A stretch of 64,000 nt of DNA, taken from positions 4,953,501 through 5,017,500 of the forward strand of contig NZ_NPJZ01000001.1 of the NCBI RefSeq assembly GCF_002245895.1. The letters run 5' to 3'. Source of the DNA: Rhodococcus sp. OK302. Lineage in GTDB: Bacteria > Actinomycetota > Actinomycetes > Mycobacteriales > Mycobacteriaceae. Numbering within the stretch: position 1 is the stretch's first letter; each line of letters begins with the position of its first letter. Positions 6,451-63,828 of the stretch are shown here, one piece after another. A program made the position numbers and the translations under genes. The notes under the pieces were generated by a model. That model did no database searches. It saw only the letters and a list, made by a program, of their open reading frames with translations, and had not been told where the DNA came from.

Positions 6451-7222
6451 CCTGCCCCACTGCCGCAGCAACCTCGACTGCCGCATGCGGTCGGGAGCGT
6501 TCGATAAGCGGCAAGGTGCGCAATTGCCGCTCGAGATGCCATTGCAAATGGGCTGCGACGAGGCCACTGGCCTGGGTTCGCAGGGACGCAGGGGCCTCAT
6601 CGGTCCCCTCCCATTCACCGCGCACGAGGGCGTCCATGAGATCAAGAACACCGGGCGACGGTGTCGCCGAACCAGGTGGGCGGCAGTACGTACACACTGC
6701 TCCACCGGCCGCGACGTGGAACGCACGGTGTGGGCCGGGAGCCGAGCACTTGGCGCATTCTTCGAGGGCGGGCGCCCACCCGGCGTAGCCCATGGCTCGG
6801 AGCAAGAAAGCATCGAGAACAAACTCGACGGGCCGTCCCTGTTCCGCGATGGCACGCAAAGCGCCGACAGTGAGTCGTTGAAGTTGCGGCGCCGGCGCAC
6901 GTTCTTCGCCGGCCAGACGCTCCGCAGTCTCGAGGATCGCGCACGCCGTGGTGTACCGGCTGTAGTCGTCGACGATGTCGGTGGCAAAGGCGTCGACCGT
7001 CTGTACCTGCGTGATGATGTCCAGGTTTCTGCCCGGCAATAGTTGGACGTCGACGTGGGCAAACGGCTCGAGCCTGGCACCGAACTTGGAGGTGGTTCTA
7101 CGGACACCTTTTGCCACGGCACGCACCAACCCGAACTGGTTGGTGAGCAACGTGACGATGTGGTCAGCTTCGCCCAGCTTATGCAGGCGTAGCACCACCG
7201 CTGTGTCTCGATACAACCTCAC
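6407..7222 (-). CDS. recO: DNA repair protein RecO
   Basis: 271 residues. RecO mediates loading of RecA onto SSB-coated DNA in the RecFOR pathway. The N-terminal OB fold ([26 protein letters not shown] ... [22 protein letters not shown]) is followed by a helical domain and a zinc motif, CAKCSAPGP with a later CTYC. The frame extends to 7297, but GTG 7222 gives the family-typical [12 protein letters not shown] and has GGGAG nine bases upstream. The final 44 bases overlap uppS. A decayed copy of its 5' end lies about 500 bases upstream (see 7620-7747). Confidence 0.92.
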
Positions 7223-45250: not shown

Positions 45251-45354
45251 CCGCATTTGAAACAACGAAACGCACTGAGCTGCAACAAATAAGAGAGATT
45301 CTTCATCTCAGGCGACGGCGAGGGCCGCCACTGCTGTATGGGTCCCGTATCTCG

Positions 45355-45433
45355 CCGGGGCCTGTCCGTCGATCGTGATCAACGAACTCGATTACGCCCA
45401 AACTTAGTGTGACACCACGTCTCACGCAACCCC
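45355..45433. repeat. Dispersed repeat, copy B
   Basis: Matches 19036-19105 over about 66-70 bases with two mismatches, including the imperfect palindrome GTGACAC-cac-GTCTCAC. This copy begins 11 bases beyond the stop codon of the KAS-like gene at 45444 and has no gene directly downstream on the minus strand before the integrase remnant. The weaker flanking similarity (GACGGACAGG against GACGAACAGG) extends the match to about 45355. Confidence 0.75.
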
Positions 45434-45443
45434 TGTCGTGGAC

Positions 45444-46367
45444 TTATTCCGACCCGGCACCGTCAAGTCCTGTCGCCGTGTGCGCTTCGTGGTTTGGCGG
45501 GACGTTGTATAGAGCGGCACCGGCTGTCACGCCGGCTCCCACTGTTACAAGAATTATCCGTGTACCCGCAGACCGTCGGGGTTCGTCCCTCTCCAAACCT
45601 GCGATCAGTGCAGCGGTATGTATGTGCTCGTCTTCGGCAACGGTGACGCCTGAACTGGGTATCCCCAGCTTTGTTGCCAATGCCGAACGAAAACCTGGGC
45701 AGGCGGGAGCGGCCACGATGGAATCGACCGCCGCCAGATCGAGTTCCGCCTGCTGCAGACAGGCAGCGACTACTTCGTAGCCTGCTGCGGCGTAGTCGTC
45801 GTCGAGCGAATCAGACTCGTTGAAACGCAGTATATTTCGGTTTTCGGATTGGCTGACCGTTGCCCGGAAAGAATCACCACCGTCGAAATTGTTCAGCCAC
45901 TGCACCGGGCCGAGCCCGTACTCATCGTCGGTCCAACGACACAACGCAGCTCCCCCGACTGCTGAAAACGGAAACCGCTCACTGAGCCGATGTCCCGGGT
46001 CAGCATCACTGGCGACGACGAGGGCACGTTCGATCACGTGAGAGCGAAGGAATCCGTCGACAATCTGCAGTGCGGTCAGGACACCACAGGTGCCGTTCGC
46101 AATATCGAAGGAGAAGGTGCCGTGCTCGCCGGTGTGCGGATCCTCCGGATGCGCCCCGATGTCGTCCTGGATCATCGCCGCGAGGGCCGGCTCACCGAGG
46201 TTGCGGTCACGATACAGACCGGCGTTCAGGAGCAGATCCAGTTCGTCCGGGCGGCAATCGGCCTGTTCGAGGCAAGACTTCGCCGCCGCTACCGCAAGGT
46301 GAAGTGCGCTGTGCCGACTCAGCCATCCAGCCCGAGTGACGTACAGCTGCTCAATGATCGTTCCCAT
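45444..46367 (-). CDS. KAS III-like protein, apparently lacking the catalytic triad
   Basis: 307 residues of the thiolase superfamily (FabH-like). Aligned to its neighbour, the nucleophile segment FDLSNACAG reads FDIANGTCG. The Cys position is Thr93, with a Cys one place later. The His of THQTS corresponds to a VAAPAC segment, and the Asn of YGNTAS to AEDEHI. All three catalytic residues therefore look replaced. It overlaps the active KAS gene by 17 bases and should form a complex with it, as PqsB does with PqsC or chain-length factors do with ketosynthases. Substrate unknown. Confidence 0.75.
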   Translation of the reverse strand: MGTIIEQLYVTRAGWLSRHSALHLAVAAAKSCLEQADCRPDELDLLLNAGLYRDRNLGEPALAAMIQDDIGAHPEDPHTGEHGTFSFDIANGTCGVLTALQIVDGFLRSHVIERALVVASDADPGHRLSERFPFSAVGGAALCRWTDDEYGLGPVQWLNNFDGGDSFRATVSQSENRNILRFNESDSLDDDYAAAGYEVVAACLQQAELDLAAVDSIVAAPACPGFRSALATKLGIPSSGVTVAEDEHIHTAALIAGLERDEPRRSAGTRIILVTVGAGVTAGAALYNVPPNHEAHTATGLDGAGSE

Positions 46368-47454
46368 AGCGCGCCACCAGTCCTTCGTCGATTTCCACCA
46401 GCACTACCCCGATCTCCAACCCGGAGGCCAAGGAGATCAACGCGACAGTCTCGCCGGGCTTGATCCGCCCAGCCTCGAGTTCTTCGACCAACGCCACGGT
46501 GTGGGTTGTCGATGCCGTGTTCCCGTATCGATCGACAGTGATGACCGCGTCGTGCCGCGGACTGTCACCGAACGACGCCTCCATCTGCGCCATACCCTTC
46601 TTGATTGCCCGCGCCGAAGTTTGATGGGTGATCACATGGTCTATGTCGTGGATCGACAGCCCGAGTGTGTCGAGTACTTCGTGCAGCAGCAACGGAGTGT
46701 CGGCGATAGCGGCCTTCTGAATGGCTCGCGAATTGGTGAACATGCGAGCACCCGGCGCATTGCCCTTCGGGTAAGCCAGGCACAACCGGCTGTAATCGGC
46801 GACAGTCGTAAATCCGGCGAGCCGGATCCCCGCCGCACCGGCGGGCGCACGTTCGAGGACAAGCGCCGCGCCCGCATCGCCCAAGGTCAGGGAAGCTAAC
46901 TCTTTGCTCATGATGTTGTGAATATGCTTCGCTGCATTCTGACCGAGCTGCGAAATGTACTCACCGCTCACGACCAGCGCCCGCTCGATCAAGCCCTGGC
47001 GAATCCAGTTGTTGGCCACCATCACACCGGTGAGCATCCCAGCGCAAGCATTCGATAAATCGAAAGTCATAGCCTTGTCGGCCCCGAGAGCCTGCGCAAC
47101 GCCACTACTCATTGTCGGCTCGAGCCACTGAGTGAGGCCGCCACGAAACTTGGTGATGCTGCAGCTGATCACCACGTTTATCGACTCGGCGGCACAACCC
47201 GACCGTCGCAATGCATCCTGCGCGGCTGCAATCGCAAGTGTGTAGGAATCCTCGTCGCCCACACTGACCCGACGCTCGTGGATTCCAGTCAGTCGTTCGA
47301 GGTCGACATGAGTTTCGTGGCGTGTTGTTGCCATCAAATCCTCGGTCGTGAGTCGTGTGACGGGAAGATGCCGACCTGCCCCGGCCACCCTCGTTCGATA
47401 CGGCTCTCGTGTGTCGTGGCATTCCGAGTCCGTCACCAGCCAGTGTTTGACCAT
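46351..47454 (-). CDS. KAS III (FabH/PqsC-like) condensing enzyme, catalytic subunit
   Basis: 367 residues. Complete Cys-His-Asn triad: C137 in FDLSNACAGML, H277 in VITHQTSARA, N312 in RYGNTASTTH. The N-terminal half starts with RTRVAGAGRHLPVTRLTTEDLMA, typical of 3-oxoacyl-ACP synthase III, and GDAGAALVLE is present. It would condense an acyl thioester with a second acyl or amine-type acceptor. RBS GAGGAA precedes ATG 47454. It is followed by the overlapping triad-less homologue and preceded by a Met-rich small ORF and a SHOCT gene on the same strand. Not the housekeeping fabH by context. Confidence 0.87.
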   Translation of the reverse strand: MVKHWLVTDSECHDTREPYRTRVAGAGRHLPVTRLTTEDLMATTRHETHVDLERLTGIHERRVSVGDEDSYTLAIAAAQDALRRSGCAAESINVVISCSITKFRGGLTQWLEPTMSSGVAQALGADKAMTFDLSNACAGMLTGVMVANNWIRQGLIERALVVSGEYISQLGQNAAKHIHNIMSKELASLTLGDAGAALVLERAPAGAAGIRLAGFTTVADYSRLCLAYPKGNAPGARMFTNSRAIQKAAIADTPLLLHEVLDTLGLSIHDIDHVITHQTSARAIKKGMAQMEASFGDSPRHDAVITVDRYGNTASTTHTVALVEELEAGRIKPGETVALISLASGLEIGVVLVEIDEGLVARYGNDH

Positions 47455-47493
47455 TTCACTCGATTCCTCGCTCTGGGATTCCTCACTCCGGAG

Positions 47494-47583
47494 TTACTTC
47501 ATCGGCATCATCTGCATGGGCGGCAGTATGCCCATGCCGTGGAGAAACATCATGAACATGTGGAACATCTGCATCGCATCCAT
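47494..47583 (-). CDS. 29-residue methionine-rich peptide
   Basis: The ORF encodes MDAMQMFHMFMMFLHGMGIL then PPMQMMPMK: 11 Met in 29 residues, plus two His and no Cys. The ribosome site is near-perfect (AAGGAGGTGAT), placing the ATG at 47583 eight bases after GGAGG. A second ATG at 47589 lies too close to the SD. It sits between the SHOCT gene (36 bases upstream) and the KAS III gene (40 bases downstream), all on one strand. Clusters of Met with His (MQMFHMFMM) are the pattern of Cu(I)-binding segments. I do not recognise the peptide family. Confidence 0.6.
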   Translation of the reverse strand: MDAMQMFHMFMMFLHGMGILPPMQMMPMK

Positions 47584-47618
47584 TGCCATCACCTCCTTCG
47601 AGATTCACTGCGAATTAC

Positions 47619-47909
47619 TCAGGGGGACGGCTCTGTTCGTAAAACAGTCAGGCGGCTCCTGTACTCGGCCTCGTCGATCTCCCCACGCGCGTAACGCTCG
47701 GCAAGAAGTTGCTCTGCGCTGTGATGCGGCGGCGGAAAACTTGCCGACGGACTGCTTCCGGACGACCTACTCCCAGACTCCGCGGGTCCGTGTCCGGCAT
47801 AGCGAATCAGCAGAAAAATACCCAAGATCAACAGGCCCCAGAACAGGGCCATACCAACGAACATCAGTACGTAACCCCAACCCCAACTACCGGAATAATG
47901 GTCGTACAT
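47619..47909 (-). CDS. SHOCT-domain small membrane protein
   Basis: 96 residues from ATG 47909, preceded by GGAGG nine bases away. The N-terminus MYDHYSGSWGWGYVLMFVGM leads into one transmembrane helix (VLMFVGMALFWGLLILGIFLLIRYA). A Ser/Pro-rich linker and a C-terminal SHOCT motif follow (AEQLLAERYARGEIDEAEYRSRLTVL). In actinobacteria, proteins with this exact layout are often found near copper or heavy-metal genes; their function is unknown. An open frame extends upstream to 48050 without family-like sequence. First gene of the SHOCT - Met-rich peptide - KAS - KAS unit. Confidence 0.85.
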   Translation of the reverse strand: MYDHYSGSWGWGYVLMFVGMALFWGLLILGIFLLIRYAGHGPAESGSRSSGSSPSASFPPPHHSAEQLLAERYARGEIDEAEYRSRLTVLRTEPSP

Positions 47910-48198
47910 CACAACGGGCCTCCAAGTTCTCCATGCGGCCGTGCGCACTCCCTCGAAGGGGCGTCTCACGCGCCTTCCCTCAGGATGCGCTGTTCCCCGA
48001 CGCATCCACAGGGTCTTTCTGCTCGACTTCCACGAGCAAAAAAGTGTCATCCGTCCTGCCGCAAGTCCTTGTCTTAGGGCACTTCTGCTCCATCTGCCCC
48101 ACTAGCCCCAACCGTGGAATCCTGCCGGTTTCCGGAGCGTTTCAGAGAAGTAACAGGGTGGTAATCAGCGACCCCCGGTTGAATGAGAAGTGCACATT

Positions 48199-49455
48199 AT
48201 GACGAACCTCCCCGAGTTCGAGGAGTTGCTTCCGACCGACCTTGCACCGACGGTCCGTCGCGACATTTCAGCCGTGATTCCCACTGTTTCCACGCCACGC
48301 GTCATGCTGGTCGACCCGCGGTTCGGCCAGCTGGCGGGGCAATTCTTTCGCCTCTTCGAACGCCCTTCCAGCGGCGGTGGAGCATTGGCGGTCTATCTCG
48401 GCGGGGAGCCCGTCGTCGATATCTGGGCAGGGTGGTCGACTCGGGATACCCGCTGGCTACCCGACACCGTGTCTGTGTCCTTCTCCACTGGAAAGGGTGT
48501 TGCCAGTACGGTTTTGCACCGTGTCGTGGAACGTGGGCTGATCGATTACGACACACCGGTCGCCGAGTATTGGCCGGAGTTCGCAAGTGCAGGCAAGGAA
48601 ACTGTGACGGTGCGGCAACTGATGACCCACCAGGCCGGGTTGCATCGTGTACGCGGCCTGGTTCCGGGCCGATTGGCGCTGCTCGATCACGACAGCATCG
48701 TCGGCGCCCTCGCATTGGCCGCACCGGACCGTCGCCGTCTCACCACACCCGGTTATCACGCAGTCACATTCGGTTCGCTGGTCGCCGAACTGACAACTCG
48801 CGCAACTGGTTCATCGTTTACGGACCTGGTCCGCACAGAGATCGCGGAACCTCTCGGAATTCCGGAATTCTGGTTCCAGGTACCCGAGGACGAACGCCAT
48901 CGCATCGCAAAGCTGTTCCCCCGCATCAATCAGTTCAAGGTTCCGTGGGACACCGCTTCCTTCGCGTTGACCCGGTTGCCAGCGCTCAGGAATATCGCGG
49001 ATGCCGGTATGCCGGCGGGGTTCGACCAGTTGGTCCGCAATCCCTCGATCCACGATTACGTCATGCCCGGATGGAACGGCGTTTTCAGTGCTCGCGCCCT
49101 TGCCCGAATGTACGCAGCACTTGCCAACCAGGGAATGGTGGGAGGCAACAGATTTCTAAGTGAAGAAACCCTGGAACAGATGGGCGAGGTACAGACCACG
49201 GCGCGCGACTATGTGCTCGGAATCCGCATGAACTGGCGACTCGGCTATCACTCGGCCTTTGTTGCCAGCCGCAATTCGTCGCTGCAGGCCTTCGGGCACT
49301 ACGGACTCGGCGGATCAGGGGCATTTGCCGACCCGGAGACAGGCTTGTCTGTGGCATTCGTGACCAACCGAATGGGCGGTGCCCTCACTCCGTTTGCCGA
49401 CCTCAGGTTGGCAAAACTGGGCGCCCAGGCGGAATCGATCGCACGCAGAGTGTGA
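48199..49455 (+). CDS. Beta-lactamase-family serine hydrolase (esterase EstB/LipE type)
   Basis: 418 residues of the class C beta-lactamase-like fold. Nucleophile motif Ser-Thr-Gly-Lys in [14 protein letters not shown], Tyr of the second motif in [17 protein letters not shown], and a C-terminal [27 protein letters not shown] that replaces KTG with GHYG. These proteins are cytoplasmic or cell-wall esterases, not antibiotic resistance enzymes. No signal peptide is visible. ATG 48199 is used; an upstream in-frame ATG at 48190 is possible. Divergent from the SHOCT-KAS unit. Confidence 0.87.
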
Positions 49456-52186: not shown

Positions 52187-53584
52187 TCAGCATGCCACCG
52201 TCACTGCGACGTCGATTCCCGGCGGACCTACGGCCAACACTGCACGGAATCCATCGGAAACCGCCGCGATCAGCGCCGGCAGATCAGGAACTGCACCCGC
52301 ATCGGCGTTGATTCCGACACACACATGCGTGGTGTACGACATCAACGTCACGTTGAATGCTGAACCGAGAGTAGGACTGAACGCCCACTGCCGGGTGATC
52401 TCCGCGCCCGCAAGATACAGCGGAGTCGTGGAACCGACCACGTCTGAGGCGACAAAATCCATGTGCTTGAGCATGTTGCCCGTCACTGCAACCGGCAGCA
52501 GATTCAGCATCGCGGCCAGGTGGGGCGAAAGCGGAATTGCAGGTTCATTCCGCCAGCTCTCTACGGTGGTGTGGACCCGGTGCATCAGCGGATCCGGATC
52601 CGAGATATCGAGCGGTAGCGCAAATCTTGCCAACGAAATGCGGTTGCCGCCCAACGGGTCTCGATCGGTGCGCAAACTTATCGGCAAGGTCACCATCAGC
52701 TCCGGCGGTACAGCACCGCAGCGTCGGTGGTACTCAGCCATTCCGAGAAGAACAGCAGCCAAGAACGCATCGTTGATCGAGCACTGTGTAGCTGTCGCGG
52801 CAGCGGCAAGGGCCGCAACCGGAAGTTCGAGCACGCCGAAACTACGACGCGCACTACGCTCAGTCATCACCGGCGACAATGTGGTTGTCGCCGGTCGCAC
52901 CATACGTGATGTCGAACCCAGAATTCGGGCGGCGCCGCGGACGGTATCGACAGGGTGGCGCAATGTACGCGCACCCGCTCGAACAGCAGACCCCGCGGCA
53001 GTCCCAACCGAGTGCGCCACAGCATTCGCGCCGGTCAGATGATCGATAGGCGTTACCGCGGTCGGCGCGGACAGACTCGATGTGCCGTCTCTTGACATGC
53101 CTTCCCTTGTCTTGTCAGTGATTTCACGTGTCAGTTGCATTCCCCCGACACCGTCGGTCAGAGAGTGATGGACCTTGACCACCAGTGCCGCGGCGCCGTC
53201 GGCCAGTCCGTCGAGCACTGTGAACTCCCAGAGCGGACGATCCTTGTCGAATGCGGCCATCCCGGCGATGCGCGCGAATTCCAGAACCTCTTTCCAAGTA
53301 CCTGGCTCCGGCAGTGTCATCCGACGCAGGTGCCAGCTGAGGTCGAAGTCGCGATCGTCCACCCATCGAGGCGGAGTCCAGGGAAACGAACTCGCAACGG
53401 CTCGACACTTGAACATCGGTACCGCGTCGATGGCGCGGTACATGACATCGACCAATCGATCTTGGTCAGGAACCTTGTCCAACAGCACAATTGAGACGAT
53501 TGTCGAGCGAAGGATCGGATCCTCCTCCATCCGCCACGACATCAGATCCGTCTGCGTCATCGATCGCACGTCCACTGCGCTCAT
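52187..53584 (-). CDS. Wax ester synthase/diacylglycerol acyltransferase (WS/DGAT)
   Basis: 465 residues. Catalytic HHxxxDG motif VHHSLTDGVGG (HHSLTDG at 139-145), PLWEFTVLDGLADGAAALVVK before it, and the C-terminal domain with NRISLARFALPLDISDPD, FVASDVVGSTTPLYLAGAEITRQ and GSAFNVTLMSYTTHVCVGINAD. It transfers acyl groups from acyl-CoA to diacylglycerol or fatty alcohol and so makes storage lipids. Dormancy-linked in mycobacteria, which fits the neighbouring CBS/PfkB/hydrogenase genes. Start ATG 53584; GTG two codons earlier is possible. Confidence 0.92.
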   Translation of the reverse strand: MSAVDVRSMTQTDLMSWRMEEDPILRSTIVSIVLLDKVPDQDRLVDVMYRAIDAVPMFKCRAVASSFPWTPPRWVDDRDFDLSWHLRRMTLPEPGTWKEVLEFARIAGMAAFDKDRPLWEFTVLDGLADGAAALVVKVHHSLTDGVGGMQLTREITDKTREGMSRDGTSSLSAPTAVTPIDHLTGANAVAHSVGTAAGSAVRAGARTLRHPVDTVRGAARILGSTSRMVRPATTTLSPVMTERSARRSFGVLELPVAALAAAATATQCSINDAFLAAVLLGMAEYHRRCGAVPPELMVTLPISLRTDRDPLGGNRISLARFALPLDISDPDPLMHRVHTTVESWRNEPAIPLSPHLAAMLNLLPVAVTGNMLKHMDFVASDVVGSTTPLYLAGAEITRQWAFSPTLGSAFNVTLMSYTTHVCVGINADAGAVPDLPALIAAVSDGFRAVLAVGPPGIDVAVTVAC

Positions 53585-53615
53585 CACCACTCGATTCCCT
53601 TGTCGTCACCCACCC

Positions 53616-54194
53616 TCAGGGCTGTAGCCGTATCTCATCCACTCCCGGCACCGACGATGCAAGTGCAATGACAACTCCTCGCTGCGGGTCATCCTCGGAA
53701 ACACCACTGATAGTGAGTGTTCCGTCGGCAAACTCCACCGCCCACAGGTCCGGCCCACCGTAGAGGTCAAGTCGATGCCGTACTTCGTCGACAATGCGAT
53801 CAGGGTCCAGCGCCAAGACCCCGATCAGGTCCTGGCGCGTCACGATTCCGATGACATCCCCCTCATGGACGATCGGCACCGCGCGCAAGCCGGAGCGGAG
53901 CATCGCCGAGGCGACGGCGTTGATCTCCGCATCTGCAGTCATCGCAATCACAGGCTTGGTCATGACATCCGCGACCGAGTCGCCGCCGGAGGCGGGCTGA
54001 TCATTCTGCGACAAGTCTTGAAACCTACTCCGGAGAAGGTCACCCTCCGAAACGATCCCGACAAGGTGCTTCTGTTCGTCGATCACGGGAAGAACCGAAA
54101 ATCCCGACCGTGAAATCACCAGTAGACATTCGTCCGTACCGGTCGCCTGATCGATCGTCGTCGCAGGACTACTCATGATGTGTCGTGCAAGCAT
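53616..54194 (-). CDS. CBS-pair and BON-domain protein
   Basis: 192 residues. Two CBS motifs: about 1-60 (MLARHIMSSPATTIDQATGTDECL ... VSEGDLLR) and about 75-130 (VADVMTKPVIAMTADAEINAVASAMLRSGLRAVPIVHEGDVIGIVTRQDLI). A C-terminal BON-like segment (IVDEVRHRL ... VEFADGTLTISGVSEDDPQRGVVIALASSVPGV) follows. CBS pairs bind adenine nucleotides; relatives (hypoxic response protein 1 type) belong to the mycobacterial dormancy regulon. RBS AAGGAG precedes ATG 54194. Divergent from the PEP synthase-like gene. Confidence 0.9.
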   Translation of the reverse strand: MLARHIMSSPATTIDQATGTDECLLVISRSGFSVLPVIDEQKHLVGIVSEGDLLRSRFQDLSQNDQPASGGDSVADVMTKPVIAMTADAEINAVASAMLRSGLRAVPIVHEGDVIGIVTRQDLIGVLALDPDRIVDEVRHRLDLYGGPDLWAVEFADGTLTISGVSEDDPQRGVVIALASSVPGVDEIRLQP

Positions 54195-54423
54195 GCCGAT
54201 TCTCCTTTAGCTGCCCGGTTGAGGCAGCCGACATCGAAGGACTGATGTATCCAGCGTGACAAACTCCTATCCCGCGGCGGAAGGGCCATGGGCACCGTGC
54301 GTGTACCGGTAATCGACCTCGAGTGCAGTGACTTCCGCCTCTGTCGACTCGACACGCATCAGAGTTCGCTGAACACTGTCGGCCGCGATCCGGTAAGCGG
54401 CCCCACTCGGATCGGGAGAGCCC

Positions 54424-56721
54424 ATGAAGACGAGTCGTTCAACCGCCACGCATCCAGTCGCCGCATACCGGTGGGTTGTACCGATCGATGCCGTCGGACC
54501 CGACGATGCACCTACTATCGGTGGCAAAGCCGCCAACCTCGGCGAGTTGATTCGGTCGAAGTTCCCGGTTCCGCCTGCATTCGTGATCAACACTGCGGGC
54601 TATCTCGATGCAATGGATGCTTCCGGCCTTCGAGAAACGTTGAAAAAGGGACCTCTGCCGCGCGCCGACAGCACCGAGGCCGCGGTCGGCTCCGCCGTCG
54701 TTCCCGACGCAATGCGCGCGGAAATTATCGACGCTTATCGTGAACTAGGGCCTTCGACCACACGCGTCGCCGTCCGTTCGTCAGCGCCTGCCGAAGACGC
54801 GGCCGATACGTCGTATGCCGGCATTCACGAGAGCTACACAAACGTGTCCGGAGACAAGAATCTCATCGATGCGGTCCGAAAGTGCTGGGCATCGCTGTGG
54901 TCTGATCGAGCATTGACGTATCGCAGTCTCCAAGGAGTACACGAAGAACCGTCGTTGGCCGTTGTTGTGCAACGCATGGTCGACGCCGACCAGTCTGGTG
55001 TCGTGTTCACTGCCGACCCCCGCACCGGCGCGAGGGATCGCATCGTGATCGAAGCTGCGACCGGCTTGGGTGAAGTGGTCGTGGGCGGACAGGTGGAACC
55101 AGACACGTATGTGGTGTCGAAACCGGATTTGTCGGTACTCGATGTGCACATCGGTTCGCAGTCCTTCGCGATCACATTGTCCGGCGGGACTGAGAAATCG
55201 TCGGAAATTCCTCTACTGCAACGTGAACAACAGATACTCACCGAAGATCAGATCCATCGGCTCGCGGTGCTCGCCGCAGCGGTGGAAGAGCACTATCAGC
55301 GGCCCCAGGACCTCGAATTCGCCTACAGCGGAGAGCAACTGTGGCTTGTCCAAACACGTCCGATCACTACGCTCGGACAGCACGCAGAAACAGAACCGCC
55401 TGACTCGCAATCAGATGGTTCGAGTGCACAGATCCTGGCGCACGGATTGGGCGCCGGACCGGGAAAAGCCACCGGCCGGGTACGGGTCCTACGTTCAGTA
55501 GCAGACGGCCGCAATCTCGTTGACGGTGAAATTCTCGTGGCACCGATGACCCGGCCGGACTGGCTTCCTGTTCTCCGACGTGCCGCCGCAATTGTCACCG
55601 ACGGCGGCGGCATCACGTGCCACGCCGCCATCGTCGGCCGCGAGCTCGGTCGACCCGTTATCGTCGGAACGCGCACGGCAACAACAGATCTTGTCGACGG
55701 AATGCTGATCACTGTCGACGGCACCGCGGGAACGGTCAGGGAAGCGGATGCGGCGACTGCCGTCACTACGAGCGCACCGACGACCCCAACCGCACCTTCG
55801 GCGGCGTCGACCCGCGGACCGACCACGGCAACATCCGTCTACGTCAACCTGGCAACACCGGAAGCTGCAGAAAGAGTGGCCGCCACGGACGTCGACGGTG
55901 TCGGTCTACTTCGGGCGGAGTTCCTGATCATGGACGCCCTCGAAGGCCTACATCCCCGCACGATGATTGCGCGTGGACTGCATGAGAAGTACGTAACCGA
56001 AATGTCTTCGGCTCTCTCGCGCATCGCGGCCGCGTTCGGCTCACGGCCCGTTATCTATCGCGCAATTGACCTACGTACTAACGAATTTGCGCACCTCGAA
56101 GGAGGCGAAGTCGAACCACACGAAGACAATCCGATGATCGGCTACCGCGGATGTTTCCGCTACATCCGGGAACCCGAATTGTTTGCACTCGATCTCGATG
56201 TCATCGCCGAAACCCGAAAGCGCTACCCCAACGTGCATCTCATGATTCCGTACGTTCGGACCGGCTGGGAACTGTCCCAGTGCCTGGCACAGTTGGATGC
56301 CCATCCCCTCGGGTCAGATCATCGGATGCTGCGATGGGTCATGGCCGAGATACCTTCGGTGGCGTATTGGATTCCCCGTTACGCGGCAATGGGAATCGAC
56401 GGAGTATCCATCGGCACCAATGACCTCACGCAATTGGTTCTCGGCGTAGACCGGGATTCGGAGATCTGCAAGGACCTCTTCGACACCATGGATCCTGCGG
56501 TCCTCGACGCCATCGACACGATCATCGAACGTGCCACCGCCGCCGGTATGTCTACCTCACTCTGCGGCCAAGCGGTATCCACGGATCCTGCACTGGCGGA
56601 ACACCTGGTGAGACAAGGAATCACGTCTGTCTCCGTCACTCCCGATGCGGCCGATACGACTCGGCGCGCAATTGCGGTAGCCGAGCGCCGAATTCTTCTC
56701 GGTCAGGCTCGCGCCGGGTAA
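54424..56721 (+). CDS. Phosphoenolpyruvate synthase-like PEP/pyruvate-binding protein
   Basis: 765 residues with three domains. The N-terminal ATP-grasp part (about 15-320) has GGKAANLGELIRSKFPVPPAFVI, AVRSSAPAEDAADTSYAGIHESY and LWLVQTRPITTLG. The phosphohistidine swivel domain has His400 in DGGGITCHAAIVGRELGRP. The C-terminal PEP-binding TIM barrel has LLRAEFLIMD, NPMIGYRGCFRY, SIGTNDLTQLVLGVDRD and the active Cys in STSLCGQAVS. It should interconvert pyruvate plus ATP and PEP. A low-complexity Ala/Thr linker (TTSAPTTPTAPSAAST) separates domains 2 and 3. Genes of this kind occur in dormancy loci next to CBS proteins. Confidence 0.9.
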   Translation: MKTSRSTATHPVAAYRWVVPIDAVGPDDAPTIGGKAANLGELIRSKFPVPPAFVINTAGYLDAMDASGLRETLKKGPLPRADSTEAAVGSAVVPDAMRAEIIDAYRELGPSTTRVAVRSSAPAEDAADTSYAGIHESYTNVSGDKNLIDAVRKCWASLWSDRALTYRSLQGVHEEPSLAVVVQRMVDADQSGVVFTADPRTGARDRIVIEAATGLGEVVVGGQVEPDTYVVSKPDLSVLDVHIGSQSFAITLSGGTEKSSEIPLLQREQQILTEDQIHRLAVLAAAVEEHYQRPQDLEFAYSGEQLWLVQTRPITTLGQHAETEPPDSQSDGSSAQILAHGLGAGPGKATGRVRVLRSVADGRNLVDGEILVAPMTRPDWLPVLRRAAAIVTDGGGITCHAAIVGRELGRPVIVGTRTATTDLVDGMLITVDGTAGTVREADAATAVTTSAPTTPTAPSAASTRGPTTATSVYVNLATPEAAERVAATDVDGVGLLRAEFLIMDALEGLHPRTMIARGLHEKYVTEMSSALSRIAAAFGSRPVIYRAIDLRTNEFAHLEGGEVEPHEDNPMIGYRGCFRYIREPELFALDLDVIAETRKRYPNVHLMIPYVRTGWELSQCLAQLDAHPLGSDHRMLRWVMAEIPSVAYWIPRYAAMGIDGVSIGTNDLTQLVLGVDRDSEICKDLFDTMDPAVLDAIDTIIERATAAGMSTSLCGQAVSTDPALAEHLVRQGITSVSVTPDAADTTRRAIAVAERRILLGQARAG

Positions 56722-56743
56722 ACGTGCCGCCCAGAAACCGCCG

Positions 56744-57592
56744 TCATGCCAGTACCTCTTGAGGGCACTTGTCGAACGCTGTTTTCATTGCCGCACCAAA
56801 GCGTTCTGGATCGTCGATCAGCCAACTGTGGGCTCCCGGAACCGTGATCACGGGCGAATCCGTCAACACCGATCGCATCGATTGGAAACTGGCCGCAGGA
56901 ATGATCCGATCGTCGAGGCCCCAGAGCAGTGCGATCGGCACCCTCCGCAGCACGAGTTGCTCGAGTTCAGCCGTGAAATCAGCGGTCCGCGCCAGATGGC
57001 CGACACGCCAGAACGCACCGGGATTGCCGAGAACGTTGGATATGGCGCAGTCTGCAATGGTCGCTGTCATCCCCAGGACCGACCGGACAGCGAACGCCTC
57101 ACCGACGGCGGCGGCGCCCCATTTCCACAACGGTCGCTCGTGTATCGGTCGTGCAACGTTGTCATCTGTCGACCAGGCACCGCCGCCCACTGCATTGACC
57201 AGCACGAGCTGCGACACTCGGCTCGAGAACTCGTGTGCGGCCGCGATCGCGACACCACCGCCGAATGAATGTCCGACGATGGTGACCGGCTCGTCGATAC
57301 CGACCGAATCGAGGTAACGCTCCAGCCAGTGCGCGTAGCCGACAAAATTCCGCTCGCCCGGTGGTAGTTCGGCGGTACCGCCGAAGCCGGGAAGCGCCGG
57401 CGCGAACACCCGCCTGCCATGCGCCGCCAGTTGACGCAGCGCGTGATCGTAGGACCGTGGAGTCAAACCCCATCCGTGAAGGAACACCACCGGAGGACCC
57501 TGCCCAACAGCACCGTAGGACACGGTTCCGACTCCGGTAACCACCTGATGCCACGCAACGCGGCCGGCTCGGCGAAGATCGTGTTCTGACAT
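56744..57592 (-). CDS. Alpha/beta-hydrolase
   Basis: 282 residues. Oxyanion motif VVFLHGWGLTPRSYD, nucleophile elbow VGHSFGGGVA (Ser), Asp in LWGLDDRIIPAASF and His in VPGAHSWL. No signal peptide. Substrate not predictable; such a hydrolase often accompanies the dormancy gene group. Start ATG 57592 has GAGGA upstream; the frame extends to 57634 without support. Convergent with the PEP synthase-like gene. Confidence 0.88.
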   Translation of the reverse strand: MSEHDLRRAGRVAWHQVVTGVGTVSYGAVGQGPPVVFLHGWGLTPRSYDHALRQLAAHGRRVFAPALPGFGGTAELPPGERNFVGYAHWLERYLDSVGIDEPVTIVGHSFGGGVAIAAAHEFSSRVSQLVLVNAVGGGAWSTDDNVARPIHERPLWKWGAAAVGEAFAVRSVLGMTATIADCAISNVLGNPGAFWRVGHLARTADFTAELEQLVLRRVPIALLWGLDDRIIPAASFQSMRSVLTDSPVITVPGAHSWLIDDPERFGAAMKTAFDKCPQEVLA

Positions 57593-57721
57593 AGGTGGGC
57601 ATTCCTCGAAATAGCAGTGACTGGACTGAGTCACAGCCTTTCGCAGATACCTGCGCGAGACGACGGCCGAACTACCTGGGACATACCTGTTTTTCGGCTC
57701 ACAGAGTTGGAATGACCTGGG

Positions 57722-58687
57722 TCAGGACGGGAATACCCCCAGGTCAGACAGTTCTTGTATCCGCGCGTAGTACATCTCGACGTCGGCAGGTTTACATGCC
57801 GCAGTACCCGGCGTCTGCAGCATTGCAGCCCCCGCCGCAACACCGAACTGCACCGCTTCCACCAGCGAACGGTTATGCACGAGCGAATACACGATGCCCG
57901 CAACCATGCTGTCACCGGCGCCGACCCCACTGATCGACGCAATATCCACCGATGGGACGTATTCGCAGATGTCAGCCGTGACCACTAGTGCGCCGTCGGC
58001 GCCGAGCGAGACGACCACCACTTCGGACACGCCTCGTTCGACGATGCTGCTCGCCGCAGCCGCTTGTTCCGCCTTCGTCTCGAGAGGCCGGTCAACCCAT
58101 TCACGGAGCTCTCGAATACTCGGTTTGACGAGGTAGACGCCTCGCTGCAACGCGCGCAGCGCACCGCCGGAGGTGTCGACAACCAGTTGCGCCCCCGCGT
58201 CGGTGAGCAGGTCGGCGAGCCGCTGACAGAAATCGCAACCGACTCCTGGTGGCAGGCTGCCACTCACGACGACAAAGCGGGATCCTGTTGCGAATTCGCG
58301 CACCCGCGCGAGACACGAATCCACCTCGGCATCCGTCAGCGTCGGCCCCGGCAGAACAAAGCGGTACTGCTGACCCGTCGAGATGTCGTCGACGGTAAAA
58401 CTCTCGCGGGTAGAACCGGAAATCGGCTCGGCAGAAAACCGCACCTGTTCACCACTGAGCAGATCCGCTATCGCCCGTCCGCAGTGTCCACCCGATGGAA
58501 AGACCGCTGTCGCGTCTTCCCCGAGAGAGTGCAGAACTCGGGCGACGTTCAATCCGCCGCCTCCAGGGTCACGACGGGGAGCAGTGCAGCGCATCTTGTC
58601 CGTGGCACGCACCGCGGGCGCACTGGTCGAGATATCGAGCGCCGGATTCATCGTCACCGTCACGACACGAGAGCTATTCTGCGACAT
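57722..58687 (-). CDS. pfkB: PfkB-family sugar kinase (phosphofructokinase B type)
   Basis: 321 residues of the ribokinase fold. VTVTMNPALDISTSAP and RCTAPRRDPGGGGLNVARVLHSLGEDATAVFP contain the first PfkB signature; GAGDSMVAGIVYSL contains the anion hole and catalytic Asp (GAGD). KPSIRELREWVDRPLE contacts the nucleotide-sugar side. Phosphorylates a sugar phosphate, probably fructose 6-phosphate or tagatose/fructose 1-phosphate. In M. tuberculosis pfkB (Rv2029c) is in the dormancy regulon. Overlaps the GNAT gene by 14 bases and is co-translated from it. Confidence 0.88.
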   Translation of the reverse strand: MSQNSSRVVTVTMNPALDISTSAPAVRATDKMRCTAPRRDPGGGGLNVARVLHSLGEDATAVFPSGGHCGRAIADLLSGEQVRFSAEPISGSTRESFTVDDISTGQQYRFVLPGPTLTDAEVDSCLARVREFATGSRFVVVSGSLPPGVGCDFCQRLADLLTDAGAQLVVDTSGGALRALQRGVYLVKPSIRELREWVDRPLETKAEQAAAASSIVERGVSEVVVVSLGADGALVVTADICEYVPSVDIASISGVGAGDSMVAGIVYSLVHNRSLVEAVQFGVAAGAAMLQTPGTAACKPADVEMYYARIQELSDLGVFPS

Positions 58688-59174
58688 GTAGTTTCACCTC
58701 GAGGTGAAGTGTGGATCCGTCACGACGGAGTGAATGTGCCCAGCCTCGTTCACGAATGACCTGAAGCATGGGTGCGTTCTCCCCCATCACCTCGGCCACC
58801 ATACATCGCGCACCGTATCGGTAAGCCTGAGCCTCGAGCCGATCCAAGATCAAGGTACCGATTCCGTGCAACCGCTCGTCTTGCGCTACTACGAGGGCGA
58901 ACTCCACGGTGGTCGGTGAAACCCCGTCCAACACGGCAAAGCTTCCGACACCCACCAATTCTTCGCCGATGAACGCGCCTAGAGCGCATCGCCGATCGTT
59001 GCACTCGCACAACTGATCGGAAAAGGCAGTGAGCTGTTTCGGCTGCGGCCCGAACCACCGCATGTACGAATCGTGCTGGTCGAGACGCGCATGTAACCGC
59101 TGAACCGCACCGACGTCATGTGCTCCGAGGCATCGAACCGTTGTCGTGCCGATTCCGCTGCCAGTCACGGCCAT
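58674..59174 (-). CDS. GNAT-family N-acetyltransferase
   Basis: 166 residues. Acetyl-CoA-binding motif region VEFALVVAQDERLHGIGTLILDRLEAQAYRYGARCMVAEVMGENAPMLQVIRERGW, with QDERLHGIGT replacing the Q/RxxGxG/A core. The N-terminal segment RWFGPQPKQLTAFS is typical of the GNAT domains appended to dormancy-type proteins. Substrate unknown; could be lysine or small-molecule acetylation. Start at ATG 59174; divergent from the hydrogenase operon. Overlaps pfkB. Confidence 0.85.
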   Translation of the reverse strand: MAVTGSGIGTTTVRCLGAHDVGAVQRLHARLDQHDSYMRWFGPQPKQLTAFSDQLCECNDRRCALGAFIGEELVGVGSFAVLDGVSPTTVEFALVVAQDERLHGIGTLILDRLEAQAYRYGARCMVAEVMGENAPMLQVIRERGWAHSLRRDGSTLHLEVKLHVAE

Positions 59175-59243
59175 CGATCATCACCTGATTCGGCTGGAGG
59201 GATACCACCCGATTGAACCGTGGCATTGCCTGCAGTGGGCAGA

Positions 59244-59253
59244 GACTTTTGTC
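59244..59253. promoter_or_regulatory. Possible DosR-like box in the GNAT/hydrogenase intergenic region
   Basis: GACTTTTGTC, preceded by GGGCA, resembles the core of the actinobacterial dormancy regulator site (GGGACTTTNGTCCC-like). It sits between the divergent GNAT-pfkB unit and the hydrogenase operon, whose homologues are hypoxia-controlled in mycobacteria. The outer GGG/CCC positions are not conserved, so this is weak. Confidence 0.3.
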
Positions 59254-59346
59254 ATCGAATATCGTCCTTCGCCCCTACCCCTGCCGGCAGCTCATGCACC
59301 AAGCTGGATCGTGGAGGAATACGGATGTCGCCCGAAAGGAGGATCC

Positions 59347-60501
59347 ATGACCGCTGCCGGATCACCCACCGACCTCACGCGCGATCACGTTGTCATAGAC
59401 CGAGTCGGGCTCGACAAACTGATCTCGGTGTTGTGTGCCGAGGGCTATCGCGTCATCGGCCCGACTGTCCGCGACAGCGCGATCGTCCTGGACACTCTCG
59501 AGTCCGGTGACCAATTGCCGGCGGGATGGGGTGTCGAGACTGGCCCGGGCCGGTATCGACTGAGGAAGAGAGCAGATTCTGCCGTCTTCGGTCACTCCGC
59601 CGGGCCGCAATCCTGGAAGCAGTACCTCCACCCGTCGCGTCAACAACTCTGGAGCGAATCCAAGGACGGCACATTCCACGCACCGCCGACCGAACCGGTG
59701 AAATACGCATTTCTCGGCGTACGTGCATGCGACCTCGCAGCGATCGGAATACTCGAGACAGTACTTTCCGCAGGAGGAAAGTCCGCGACAAGTCTTTTCG
59801 AGAATCTGTTCGTGATCGCAGCAAATTGCACGGAACCCGGCGGGGTGTGTTTCTGTGCGTCGATGAATACCGGCCCGGAGGCAAAAACCGGGTACGACCT
59901 GTGTCTGACCGAAAGAATCGACAACGACGGCCACCGATTCGTCACCGGAGTGGGCACCGCGGAAGGATCCCGGATACTCGCGCTGGTCCGTCGCAGACAA
60001 GCGACGGACGAGGAAACTGCCGAGGCCGCACGCGCTGTCGCCGATGCAGCACACCACATGGGCCGCGAAATGCCCGACGTCGATCTTCGCGGCATGCTCC
60101 GCGACGCACGGGACGCCGATGTCTGGGAGGACGTCGCGTCGCGATGCTTGACGTGCGGAAACTGCACGATGGTGTGCCCGACGTGCTTCTGCACAACTAC
60201 CGAGGATGTCTCCGATCTCGCGGGCGACAATGTCGAGCGCTGGCAGCACTGGTCGTCATGTTTCGACCTGGACTACTCGCAACTACACGGCGGCGCGGTG
60301 CGTGTCAGTGGTGAGAGCCGGTATCGACAGTGGATTTCTCACAAGCTGGGCACCTGGCACGACCAATTTGGCTCGTCCGGCTGCGTCGGTTGCGGTCGAT
60401 GCATCGACTGGTGTCCGGTGGGAATCGACATCACGGCGGAAGCGGCCCGCCTCACTGGTGCCTTGAATGTAGAACCCGACATCGATGCTGGTGGTCACTG
60501 A
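59347..60501 (+). CDS. Group 3b-type hydrogenase iron-sulfur subunit (HyhB/beta-like)
   Basis: 384 residues. Two ferredoxin-like cluster motifs: [16 protein letters not shown] from residue 267 and [16 protein letters not shown] from residue 346. Upstream conserved blocks [17 protein letters not shown] and [25 protein letters not shown] match the beta (anaerobic sulfite reductase A-like) subunit of sulfhydrogenase-type enzymes. It carries electrons between the flavin subunit and the small subunit. AAAGGAGGATCC just upstream fixes ATG 59347; a longer frame from 59146 is not used. First gene of the operon. Confidence 0.9.
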
Positions 60502-60965
60502 TGAACGATCACGCCGGCGAGTACTGTCCGAGAGAAATCGAAGCTCTGGCCGACGATCAACGTCATAGACTCGCTGCTATCTCGCGCGAGGTTCAGTTCG
60601 CGGCCGGTACCGTGGTGTTCCGCGAAGGCGAACACGCCGACAGATGCTGGCTTCTTCGGTCAGGCCGGATTGCGCTCACCACCAGGATTCCCGGACGCGG
60701 CGAGGAAACTGTCGAAACACTTTCTGTCGGTGAGATTCTGGGTGTGTCCTGGTTCCGCCCACCTCGACAGTGGCAGTGGACAGCGACTGCGGTCACTTCC
60801 GTGACAGCAGCCGAGGTCGATGCCACCATGTTGCAGTCCGTCACCGAGAGCGATCCGGATCTCGGACGGGCGATCTACTCGATCCTGGCGAACACACTCC
60901 TCCATCGATTGCAGGCTACGCGCGCACGCCTGCTCGATCTCTATGCACGCGAACATGTTCGGTGA
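60501..60965 (+). CDS. Stand-alone cyclic-nucleotide-binding-fold protein within the hydrogenase operon
   Basis: 154 residues, CRP-type effector domain only: VQFAAGTVVFREGEHADRCWLLRSGRIALTTRIPGRGEETVETLSVGEILGVSWFRPPRQWQWTATA. It has a C-terminal helix but no helix-turn-helix domain, so it is unlikely to bind DNA. The usual phosphate-binding GE(L/I)xxx...R signature reads GEILGVSWFRPPRQW. Start overlaps the stop of the iron-sulfur gene (TGATG), and the end overlaps the flavin subunit gene by 11 bases, so it is made with the hydrogenase. Possibly a redox/nucleotide-sensing subunit. Confidence 0.87.
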   Translation: MNDHAGEYCPREIEALADDQRHRLAAISREVQFAAGTVVFREGEHADRCWLLRSGRIALTTRIPGRGEETVETLSVGEILGVSWFRPPRQWQWTATAVTSVTAAEVDATMLQSVTESDPDLGRAIYSILANTLLHRLQATRARLLDLYAREHVR

Positions 60966-61779
60966 TCAACTCGTCCCGACGCCGTGCAAGGTTGTCGCCC
61001 GCCGGGACGAGAACAGCGATACCTCGACCCTGACCCTCGCCGCACCGGCGCAGTGGTTTCCCGGGTTCCGCCCCGGCCAGTTCATGATGGTCTATGCGCG
61101 GGGGGTGGGCGAGATTCCACTCTCGATCAGTGGAGACCCGGCTCACGCCGATCACACTGTGGTCCATACCGTTCGGGCTGTCGGTGCCGTCAGCCGCGCG
61201 TTGCGCGATGCCTCTGTCGGAGACGTAGTCGGTGTACGAGGACCTTTCGGAAAGGGATGGGATCTGGATTCCGCAAAGGACGATCTGATCGTCGTCGCGG
61301 GAGGCGTCGGCTTGGCGGCAGTACGTTCCGCAGTCCTGGAGGCACAGTCCTGCGGTCGATTTCGTCGAGTTGTCCTCAGCGTGGGCGCTCGCCGACCGTC
61401 CGATCTCTTGTACCGCCCAGATCTCGACGCCTGGAGCCAGGGAGACCTGGTCGACCTCGAGTTATCCGTCGACGTGACGGAACCTGACTGGCCGGGCCAT
61501 GTCGGCTTTGTCACGCAGTCCCTGAACCGCCTCGTTCTCGAGCCCGGACGCACGACGGTACTGCTGTGCGGTCCCGAGCCGATGATGCGGATGTCAGCTC
61601 GTACCATGCTCGGCAAAGGCGTTGGGCGCAAGAATATTCGAGTCTCGCTGGAACGGAACATGCAGTGTGGGACCGGGCTGTGCGGGCATTGCCAACTCGG
61701 CGAACTTCTACTCTGTCGGGACGGTCCGGTAGTCGACTACGGCGTGGCCGAGCCACTCCTCGCAGTGAAGGAGTTGTGA
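60955..61779 (+). CDS. Hydrogenase FAD/NAD(P)-binding subunit (HyhG/gamma-like)
   Basis: 274 residues of the ferredoxin-NADP reductase family: FAD region [25 protein letters not shown](P) region [19 protein letters not shown] and [14 protein letters not shown]-terminal [2Fe-2S] site like PyrK follows ([23 protein letters not shown], four Cys). It exchanges electrons between NAD(P)H and the iron-sulfur subunits. Start uncertain: ATG 60955 or ATG 60943. Ends in a one-base TGATG overlap with the small subunit gene. Confidence 0.9.
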
Positions 61780-62546
61780 TGAGCACACTCACCCTGGCGG
61801 TCTGGAAGTTCGCATCCTGCGACGGATGTCAGCTGACGCTGCTCGACTGTGAGGACGAATTACTCACTTTGGCCGACGCCGTTCACATCTCGCATTTCCT
61901 CGAGATGTCGAGCGCGGTGGAAACTGGACCCTACGACCTCTCACTGGTCGAGGGGTCGATCACCACCGCGGCCGATGTCGAACGCATACACATGATCCGG
62001 GACAACTCCCGGTACCTGGTGACGATCGGCGCCTGCGCGACTTCTGGTGGGATACAGGCTCTCCGGAACTTCGCGGACATTTCCGAGTTCATGTCCGTGG
62101 TCTACGCAAGCCCCGAATACATCGATACTCTCGCGACGTCCACACCGATCGCCGCCCATGTCCCGGTCGATTTCGAACTCCGAGGCTGCCCGATCGATCG
62201 TCGGCAACTCCTCGAGGTGATTTCGTCGTACCTGGTGGGACGCAAGCCGAACATCCCGGACACCAGCGTCTGCGCCGAATGCAAGCGACGTGGCCTCACC
62301 TGCGTCATGGTCGCCGACGGCACACCCTGCTTGGGGCCGGTTACCCATTCCGGCTGCGGCGCACTGTGTCCCGCACATTCGCGGGGTTGCTACGGATGCT
62401 TCGGCCCGTCGTCCGATCCGAATTTGACTGCAATGTCCGGGTGGCTTCGAACCTGCGGGATGACCGACGAGGGTATCGAGCGGGTCTTCTCGACGTTCAA
62501 CGTCGCCTCCCCCGAGTTCGACGGGATCAGGCGAGATGGACAGTGA
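61779..62546 (+). CDS. [NiFe] hydrogenase small subunit (group 3b-like)
   Basis: 255 residues. Proximal-cluster ligands start with CDGC (C14, C17). GACATSGG follows, then [16 protein letters not shown], and the C-terminal Cys clusters [13 protein letters not shown] and [21 protein letters not shown]. No Tat signal, so it is cytoplasmic. The pattern is that of NADP-linked group 3b (bidirectional/sulfhydrogenase) enzymes. Overlaps the large subunit gene by 11 bases. Confidence 0.92.
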
Positions 62547-63828
62547 AAACACCCGGCTGACGCTGGGTTCCCTCGCCCGTGTCGAAGGGGAAGGCCGTCT
62601 GGCATTCACGGTCCGACACGGCCGCGTCGAAGCCGCAGAGTTGAACATCTACGAACCCCCACGGTTCTTCGAATCATTTCTCCGGGGACGCGATTTCCGC
62701 GAGCCTCCCGACATCACCTCCAGGATTTGCGGAATCTGTCCTGTCGCTTATCAAGTCAGCGCCTGCAACGCGATCGAGCAGGCCTGCGGCGCGCACCTCA
62801 CCCAACCGATTCTCGATCTGCGACGACTCCTCTATTGCGGCGAGTGGATCGCCAGTCACACACTGCACATCTACCTGCTGCATGCGCCTGATTTCCTGGG
62901 CGCCGCCGATGCCATCGAACTCGCCCGAATCGCGCGTCCCGAAGTCGAACGTGGGCTCGCTTTGAAGAAGGCGGGAAACGCGATTCTCGAATTGATCGGT
63001 GGCCGATCAATTCACCCGGTGAACGTTCGTCTCGGCGGCTTCTATCGAGCGCCGACGCCGAGTGAACTGGCGCCCCTCGCCGAACAATTGCGCACGGCGC
63101 TCGACGACGCTCTCGCGACGGTGCGGTGGGTGTCGCACTTCGAATTCCCCGATGCCGAGATAGATTCCGAACTACTCGCACTAGCTCAGCCGGGACGCTA
63201 CGCGATCGAAGACGGCATGTTGACAACCACATCCGGATTGTCTTTCACACCCGAGGAATTCTGCGATCACGTCGAGGAACGTCAGGTTTCCTATTCGACC
63301 GCGCTGCACGCGCACCTCGACGGTCATGCCTATCTCACCGGGCCATTGGCGCGGTACAGCCTCCACTCCGCCGAACTGTCGGACACCGCTCGTCAAGCTG
63401 CCACCGAGGCGGGCTTGGGAACAGTGTGCCGCAACCCGTTTCAGAGCATTGTGGTGCGTGCCGTCGAAACGGTGTTTGCCGTGGACGAGGCGCTACGCCT
63501 GATACGCGAGTACCAATACCCGAATCGCCCGTACGTCGACATCTCGCCCCGTGCCGCAACCGGGTACGGCGTCAGCGAAGCCCCGCGAGGCATGCTGTAC
63601 CACTGCTACCAACTCGATTTCGAAGGCCGCATCCTGCGCGCGACAATCATTCCGCCCACCTCCCAGAACCAGGCAGCAATCGAGAACGACCTCCGCAGCA
63701 CCCTCTCCGCGAACCTGAGACTGACAGACACCGAGCTGACAGGACTGTGCGAACGGACCATCCGGAACTACGACCCCTGCATCTCGTGTGCCACTCATTT
63801 TCTCGACCTGACAATCGACCGCGGATGA
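62536..63828 (+). CDS. [NiFe] hydrogenase large subunit (group 3b-like)
   Basis: 430 residues. Nickel ligands in RICGIC (C65, C68) near the N-terminus and DPCISCATH (C415, C418) near the C-terminus. The sequence after His421 leaves a nine-residue C-terminal peptide that the maturation protease should remove. [14 protein letters not shown] at the start is family-typical. It forms the H2-activating NiFe(CN)2CO centre. Followed by its protease gene with an ATGA overlap. Confidence 0.93.

What the first reader, a model, noticed from the sequence alone, without database searches (positions are those of the whole stretch)
47494..47583. Tiny methionine-rich peptide with a near-perfect ribosome site inside a SHOCT/KAS operon
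The 29-residue product has 11 Met and two His and no Cys. It is preceded by AAGGAGGTGAT and lies in tight same-strand spacing with a SHOCT membrane protein and two KAS III-like genes. Met/His clusters such as MQMFHMFMM are the known chemistry of Cu(I)-binding segments. A peptide with such composition and strong translation signals is unlikely to be chance, and I know of no described family. It may be a metal chaperone, a precursor peptide or a leader that senses methionine supply.
Basis: partly seen in the sequence, partly recalled or inferred. Interest (0 to 1): 0.8.

Follow-up and report, generated by a model that had tools for sequence, protein, structure and literature searches.

The report
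Tiny conserved His/Met copper-type peptide family
A 29-residue, unannotated bacterial peptide proves to be a real, conserved gene whose two histidines and two central methionines would line one face of a helix, as in known silver- and copper-binding peptides, and whose relatives often sit beside copper-resistance genes or low-oxygen survival genes.

Summary
The ORF is real. It lies on the minus strand, 47494-47583 (MDAMQMFHMFMMFLHGMGILPPMQMMPMK), 35 nt behind a SHOCT membrane protein and 39 nt before a KAS III gene. Eleven type-1 orthologues give pN/pS 0.24. A profile finds the family in 30 of 401 genomes of the window's GTDB family; in a class-wide sample 3 of 394 matched, only one, weakly, outside that family. 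Over 37 loci the fixed feature is not Met-richness but a motif, HxxMMxxH, followed by G and P-P-M: 31 of 37 loci, and no other hit in 1.24 million six-frame residues. On the predicted helix the four residues share a face, as in SilE silver-binding peptides (PMC10080550, passages). SHOCT lies on the same strand within 2 kb in 22 of 37; a multicopper oxidase, CopA-type ATPase or FTR1 permease lies within 800 nt in 9 of 37. Others, the window included, lie in islands resembling dormancy regulons. Best explanation: a helical Cu(I)-binding micropeptide that buffers or hands over Cu(I) together with SHOCT. Metal binding, expression and hypoxic control are inferred, not shown. No Pfam, NCBIfam or PDB sequence match.

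The parts
47494..47583 (-). 29-residue His/Met peptide gene; motif H8-x-x-M11-M12-x-x-H15, then G18 and P21-P22-M23
   Evidence: ORF; pN/pS 0.24; motif; family
47588..47598 (-). ribosome-binding site AAGGAGGTGAT
   Evidence: a GGAG-type site precedes the start in the orthologues compared
47619..47909 (-). partner: small membrane protein with C-terminal SHOCT domain
   Evidence: PF09851, E 9e-7; same strand within 2 kb of the peptide in 22 of 37 loci
46351..47454 (-). KAS III-like gene, next downstream; neighbour in part of the family only
   Evidence: PF08541/PF08545; adjacency
45444..46367 (-). second KAS III-like gene, overlapping the first; weak match
   Evidence: PF08545 20.5-21.1 bits class, below the curated cut-off (21.1 against 24, and 20.7 against 26.6)
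48007..48019 (-). conserved 13-mer GAAAGACCCTGTG upstream of SHOCT, role unknown
   Evidence: 13 of 13 type-1 loci (12 with the peptide, plus G021) with at most one mismatch; one further one-mismatch hit in L122

Best explanation
A genuine gene for a helical micropeptide of about 29 residues that binds a soft metal ion, most likely Cu(I), through two His and two Met on one helix face (HxxMMxxH), with further Met ligands in the Gly-x-x-Pro-Pro-Met tail. It is made together with a SHOCT membrane protein and buffers Cu(I) or passes it on at the membrane: towards a multicopper oxidase or CopA-type pump where these share the locus, or as a guard against Cu(I) in low-oxygen islands such as the window's. 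Shown here: the gene, its selection, the motif, the neighbours. Inferred: metal binding and the metal's identity, membrane association, contact with SHOCT, hypoxic use.
For: Purifying selection. HxxMMxxH in 31 of 37 loci and in no other six-frame stretch of the same loci; in 34 aligned cores H8 33, M11 33, M12 34, H15 31, while Met at positions 6, 9 and 17 is kept in 22, 16 and 28. Predicted helix over the motif. SilE peptides with HXXM/HXXMM bind Ag(I) with these residues on one helix face (PMC10080550, passages). Multicopper oxidase within 800 nt in 7 of 37, any of oxidase/CopA/FTR1 in 9 of 37, with 0-10 oxidase-domain matches per genome in 15 genomes. SHOCT linkage kept in several gene orders.
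Against: No binding, expression or phenotype data. The type-1 group, to which the window belongs, has no copper gene within 800 nt. 4 of 37 loci have none of the tracked neighbours. 6 of 37 lack the full motif. G021 lost the peptide but kept SHOCT. The structure model is single-sequence and of a 31-residue reading. No DosR box was found.
Confidence: 0.55

Rival explanations
1. A small membrane-associated regulator of the SHOCT protein or of a transporter, acting by protein contact without binding metal, as some small membrane subunits do (recalled).
For: Hydrophobic helix, recurrent SHOCT neighbour (22 of 37).
Against: Does not explain why His and Met at i, i+3, i+4, i+7 are the fixed positions; 15 of 37 loci have no SHOCT on the same strand within 2 kb (the flank of L059 is cut at the contig end).
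Confidence: 0.2
2. A translated control element: a short ORF whose translation senses copper or methionine and sets expression of a neighbour, as proposed for other small ORFs beside copper genes.
For: Strong ribosome site, tight spacing. Small ORFs are known to matter for oxidase operons (CutF, PMC8456105, abstract).
Against: It often lies behind its partner: 3' of SHOCT or of the multicopper oxidase. Selection is on amino acids, with synonymous change allowed. No Rfam element.
Confidence: 0.08
3. A sacrificial methionine sink against oxidants.
For: 11 of 29 residues are Met; Met is oxidant-sensitive (PMC9302797, abstract).
Against: Met number and position vary outside the motif while His, Gly and Pro are fixed; no methionine sulfoxide reductase was noticed next to it, though none was searched for.
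Confidence: 0.07
4. A chance ORF.
For: Small size; absent from the gene tables of the two plasmid records looked at, tables that the tool calls incomplete.
Against: pN/pS 0.24, kept frame and ribosome site; found in 8 of 31 genera sampled.
Confidence: 0.01

Closest known systems
SilE and its Ag(I)-binding model peptides (HXXM, HXXMM)
   Same: His-x-x-Met(-Met) with ligands at i, i+3, i+4 on one helix face; Met/His-rich (PMC10080550, passages).
   Different: SilE is a longer periplasmic protein of silver-resistance systems with several sites; here there is one motif in 28-35 residues, no sequence match in the PDB, and a different genomic setting.
CusF / SilF periplasmic Cu(I)/Ag(I) chaperones
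   Same: His plus two Met as ligands and a nearby Trp in 24 of 34 cores (ligand set from PMC10656224, passages).
   Different: CusF and SilF are beta-barrel (OB-fold) proteins; this is predicted to be a lone helix. No homology was found; the likeness is of ligands only.
CutF-type small proteins of multicopper oxidase operons
   Same: Small product encoded beside a multicopper oxidase and thought to act with copper (PMC8456105, abstract).
   Different: The family here has its own motif and SHOCT partner, and occurs without the oxidase in most loci (30 of 37 have none within 800 nt). Sequences were not compared.
Mycobacterial copper small proteins (MymT, SocA/SocB)
   Same: Small copper-linked proteins in related bacteria (search listing; details recalled).
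   Different: MymT is Cys-rich (recalled) and the window peptide has no Cys; SocA/SocB were not compared.

Membership tests
SilE | HXXM-type metal motif | tested here: met
   HxxMMxxH in 31 of 37 loci
SilE | Exported protein with several motifs, well over 100 residues (recalled) | tested here: not met
   28-35 residue ORFs with one motif as a rule; no room for a signal peptide plus mature chain
SilE | Ag(I)/Cu(I) binding with helix formation | not testable with these tools
   needs the synthetic peptide
CusF/SilF | OB-fold barrel with His, Met, Met, Trp site | tested here: not met
   29 residues, helix predicted; no PDB sequence match at E <= 1
Known Pfam or NCBIfam family | Match to a curated model | tested here: not met
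   8 proteins each: 0 matches for the 7 peptides given to NCBIfam and the 8 given to Pfam, E <= 1
DosR-type dormancy regulon | DosR box upstream | tested here: not met
   best scores within the shuffled range in 14 upstream regions (consensus and weights recalled/own, so a weak box could be missed)
DosR-type dormancy regulon | Company of dormancy-type genes | tested here: inconclusive
   WS/DGAT, nitroreductase, Hsp20 or hydrogenase within 6 kb in 17 of 37 loci, 10 of them type 1; no chance expectation computed, and the link of these families to DosR is recalled

The most novel reading that the evidence does not exclude
One of the smallest dedicated, genetically encoded Cu(I) chaperones: a free-standing helix of about 28 residues with a two-His/two-Met stripe, working with a SHOCT membrane protein, used by Rhodococcus, Nocardia and kin both in copper-resistance operons and in low-oxygen dormancy islands, so that hypoxic survival carries its own Cu(I) guard.
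Probability: 0.35. Interest if true: 0.85.

Novelty: new variant of a known kind. Interest (0 to 1): 0.7.

Why it matters
A family of real, unannotated genes of about 30 codons with a testable metal site would extend known copper-handling proteins down to one short helix. It gives SHOCT proteins, whose role here is unknown, a recurrent partner. It also offers a handle on why copper and hypoxia responses are entangled in related bacteria: loss of csoR induces the DosR regulon in M. tuberculosis and that paper cites copper as more toxic under hypoxia (PMC4801387, passages); a hypoxia-driven copper response is reported in M. bovis (PMC9048740, abstract). The peptide is short enough to synthesise, so the central claim is quick to test.

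Tried and rejected
Canonical DosR box upstream of the operon: none above the shuffled range in 14 upstream regions (one of them, L056, has no peptide). Promoter/terminator consensus scan: nothing beyond shuffles. The conserved 13-mer as a regulon-wide operator: not supported; 7 matches in four genomes, the same number as the reversed control pattern, for a form beginning with C or G that excludes the window's own form beginning with A. Rfam element in 45300-48300: none at E <= 1. The SHOCT MxxxM segment as a mark of the pair: rejected; it is in 18 of 18 SHOCT proteins aligned from peptide loci but also in several away from any peptide found. Spread beyond the GTDB family: one weak hit (G518, E 0.02) among 394 genomes of a class sample (how many of those lie outside the family is not listed).

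Rows left out: L053 (internal duplication) from the 11-sequence pN/pS count; L060 (core deleted), L123 (decayed, no clear start) and L134 (doubtful reading) from the 34-row column count. All 37 loci are; L134 counts among the 31 with the motif. The 37 loci are the 35 distinct places plus two Nocardia records. They are not independent: 12 are type-1 loci of one genus. Flanks of L055, L059, L060 and L122 are cut short by contig or fetch ends, so their neighbour counts are lower bounds.

Full report
The observation. The ORF lies on the minus strand at 47494-47583 and reads MDAMQMFHMFMMFLHGMGILPPMQMMPMK: 29 residues, 11 Met, 2 His, no Cys. AAGGAGGTGAT lies 4 nt before the ATG (GGAGG 8 nt before it). 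The SHOCT gene (PF09851) ends 35 nt before it and a KAS III gene starts 39 nt after it. In a scan for Met-rich ORFs of 20-70 residues with a ribosome-site-like stretch it is the only hit in the window.

It is a gene. A search of 28 genomes of the genus found a match in 12 at E <= 1; the SHOCT protein matched in 17 of 28. In 12 loci including the window (type 1) the peptide follows SHOCT directly, behind a GGAG-type site. In 11 of these, leaving out L053 with its internal duplication, pS is 0.384 and pN 0.092, ratio 0.24; mean identity is 86.8% in the ORF and 31.0% in the next 45 nt compared without gaps. One genome (G021) has an identical SHOCT protein but no peptide. The ORF is intact in two related plasmids, of Rhodococcus sp. 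DK17 and R. qingshengii CS98, and is missing from the gene table held for both, a table that the tool calls incomplete.

It is a family. A profile of ten type-1 peptides and then of 20 peptides reached further: 30 of 401 genomes of the window's GTDB family at E <= 0.02, in 8 of 31 genera. In a class sample 3 of 394 matched, two of them in that same family and one weakly outside it. Named records: Rhodococcus sp. IEGM 1379, R. qingshengii, R. opacus, R. koreensis (two places), R. wratislaviensis, a Rhodococcus MAG (two places), Nocardia africana and N. stercoris (10 loci). No NCBIfam model matches 7 peptides and no Pfam model matches 8, nor any PDB sequence the profile.

What is conserved. Over 34 cores aligned by hand H8 is kept in 33, M11 in 33, M12 in 34, H15 in 31, G18 in 34, P21 in 32 and M23 in 32, while Met at positions 6, 9 and 17 is kept in 22, 16 and 28; Trp stands at position 13, beside the Met pair, in 24 (L060, L123, L134 left out). 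HxxMMxxH occurs in 31 of all 37 loci and nowhere else in 1,244,460 six-frame residues of those loci. The family was found with profiles that contain the motif, so this shows specificity, not independent discovery. AlphaFold2 on the single 31-residue reading gives a helix at residues 5-19 (3-17 of the 29-mer), mean pLDDT 82.4, pTM 0.39. Positions i, i+3, i+4 and i+7 face one side of a helix (angles).

Neighbours. Of 37 loci, SHOCT is on the same strand within 250 nt in 18 and within 2 kb in 22; a multicopper oxidase is within 800 nt in 7; an oxidase, CopA-type ATPase or FTR1 permease is within 800 nt in 9; an ArsR-type regulator within 300 nt in 2; OmpR-type regulator or kinase within 3 kb in 5; 4 have none of SHOCT, copper, ArsR or dormancy-type neighbours (Pfam identities). 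None of the 12 type-1 loci has a copper gene within 800 nt. Fifteen genomes hold 0-10 multicopper-oxidase domain matches each and sixteen hold 2-7 SHOCT matches each, so such closeness is not expected by chance in genomes of about 4-8 Mb. The order differs: SHOCT-peptide; peptide-SHOCT (L120, L121, L131, L133); SHOCT-oxidase-peptide (L057, L058, L060); SHOCT-peptide-oxidase (L122). Linkage kept through rearrangement suggests a working relation.

Dormancy-type islands. Type-1 loci sit among WS/DGAT, universal stress, hydrogenase, Rv2632c-like and related genes. Two loci elsewhere have CBS and Hsp20 genes directly upstream (L128, L132), and L084 and L085 have nitroreductases. WS/DGAT, nitroreductase, Hsp20 or hydrogenase lie within 6 kb in 17 of 37, 10 of these type 1; no chance expectation was computed. 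These families recall the DosR regulon (recalled). L058 combines both worlds: SHOCT, oxidase, peptide and a WS/DGAT gene about 2 kb away. No DosR box was found, so hypoxic control remains a guess. A 13-mer, GAAAGACCCTGTG, is conserved upstream of SHOCT in 13 of 13 type-1 loci (12 with the peptide plus G021) at up to one mismatch, with one further hit in L122; its role is unknown.

Mechanism. The most economical reading is a soft-metal-binding helix. SilE model peptides bind Ag(I) through HXXM and HXXMM, with the residues on one helix face, and gain helix on binding (PMC10080550, passages). SilF binds Ag(I) and Cu(I) through one His and two Met with a nearby Trp, and CusF has the same site with a closer Trp (PMC10656224, passages). 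Copper-resistance neighbours favour Cu(I). A role with SHOCT at the membrane, handing Cu(I) to a pump or oxidase, is inference. A copper-hypoxia link is reported for mycobacteria (PMC4801387, passages; PMC9048740, abstract); whether those species carry the peptide was not tested by name.

Print record. The paper searches made listed no paper whose title or shown abstract describes this family. They cover only the open library held, and most listed papers were seen as listing only; PMC8456105 and PMC9302797 were seen as outline and abstract.

Verdict. Real gene, new family, function inferred. What it works like: a single SilE-type site. Membership: neither SilE nor CusF.

Noticed in passing
48007-48019 (minus strand) and the matching place in L044-L055: A 13-mer, GAAAGACCCTGTG, upstream of SHOCT is conserved in 13 of 13 type-1 loci although the surrounding sequence has diverged; it is rare elsewhere. 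Operator, promoter or leader element: unknown.
   Followed up: partly
L028, L029, L032, L037, L038: SHOCT proteins away from any peptide found share an MxxxM pattern in the hydrophobic segment with the peptide-linked ones, which may point to metal handling by these SHOCT proteins themselves.
   Followed up: partly
L053:9109-9243: The peptide of G010 is 44 residues long and carries an internal near-repeat (HELMMWLHGAGLLPHEFMMWLHGAGILPH), as if the metal-site unit had been duplicated.
   Followed up: no
L044 (G021): SHOCT protein identical to the window's, but the peptide between SHOCT and KAS III is gone.
   Followed up: no
L123 about 6982-7047 (minus strand): A decayed-looking relative (LHLFILWLQEMGILPPMHVMPM) without a clear start, directly before a WS/DGAT gene.
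   Followed up: no
window 52187-63828: WS/DGAT, PEP synthase-like, PfkB and [NiFe]-hydrogenase-type genes lie together, resembling a dormancy regulon island (recalled).
   Followed up: partly
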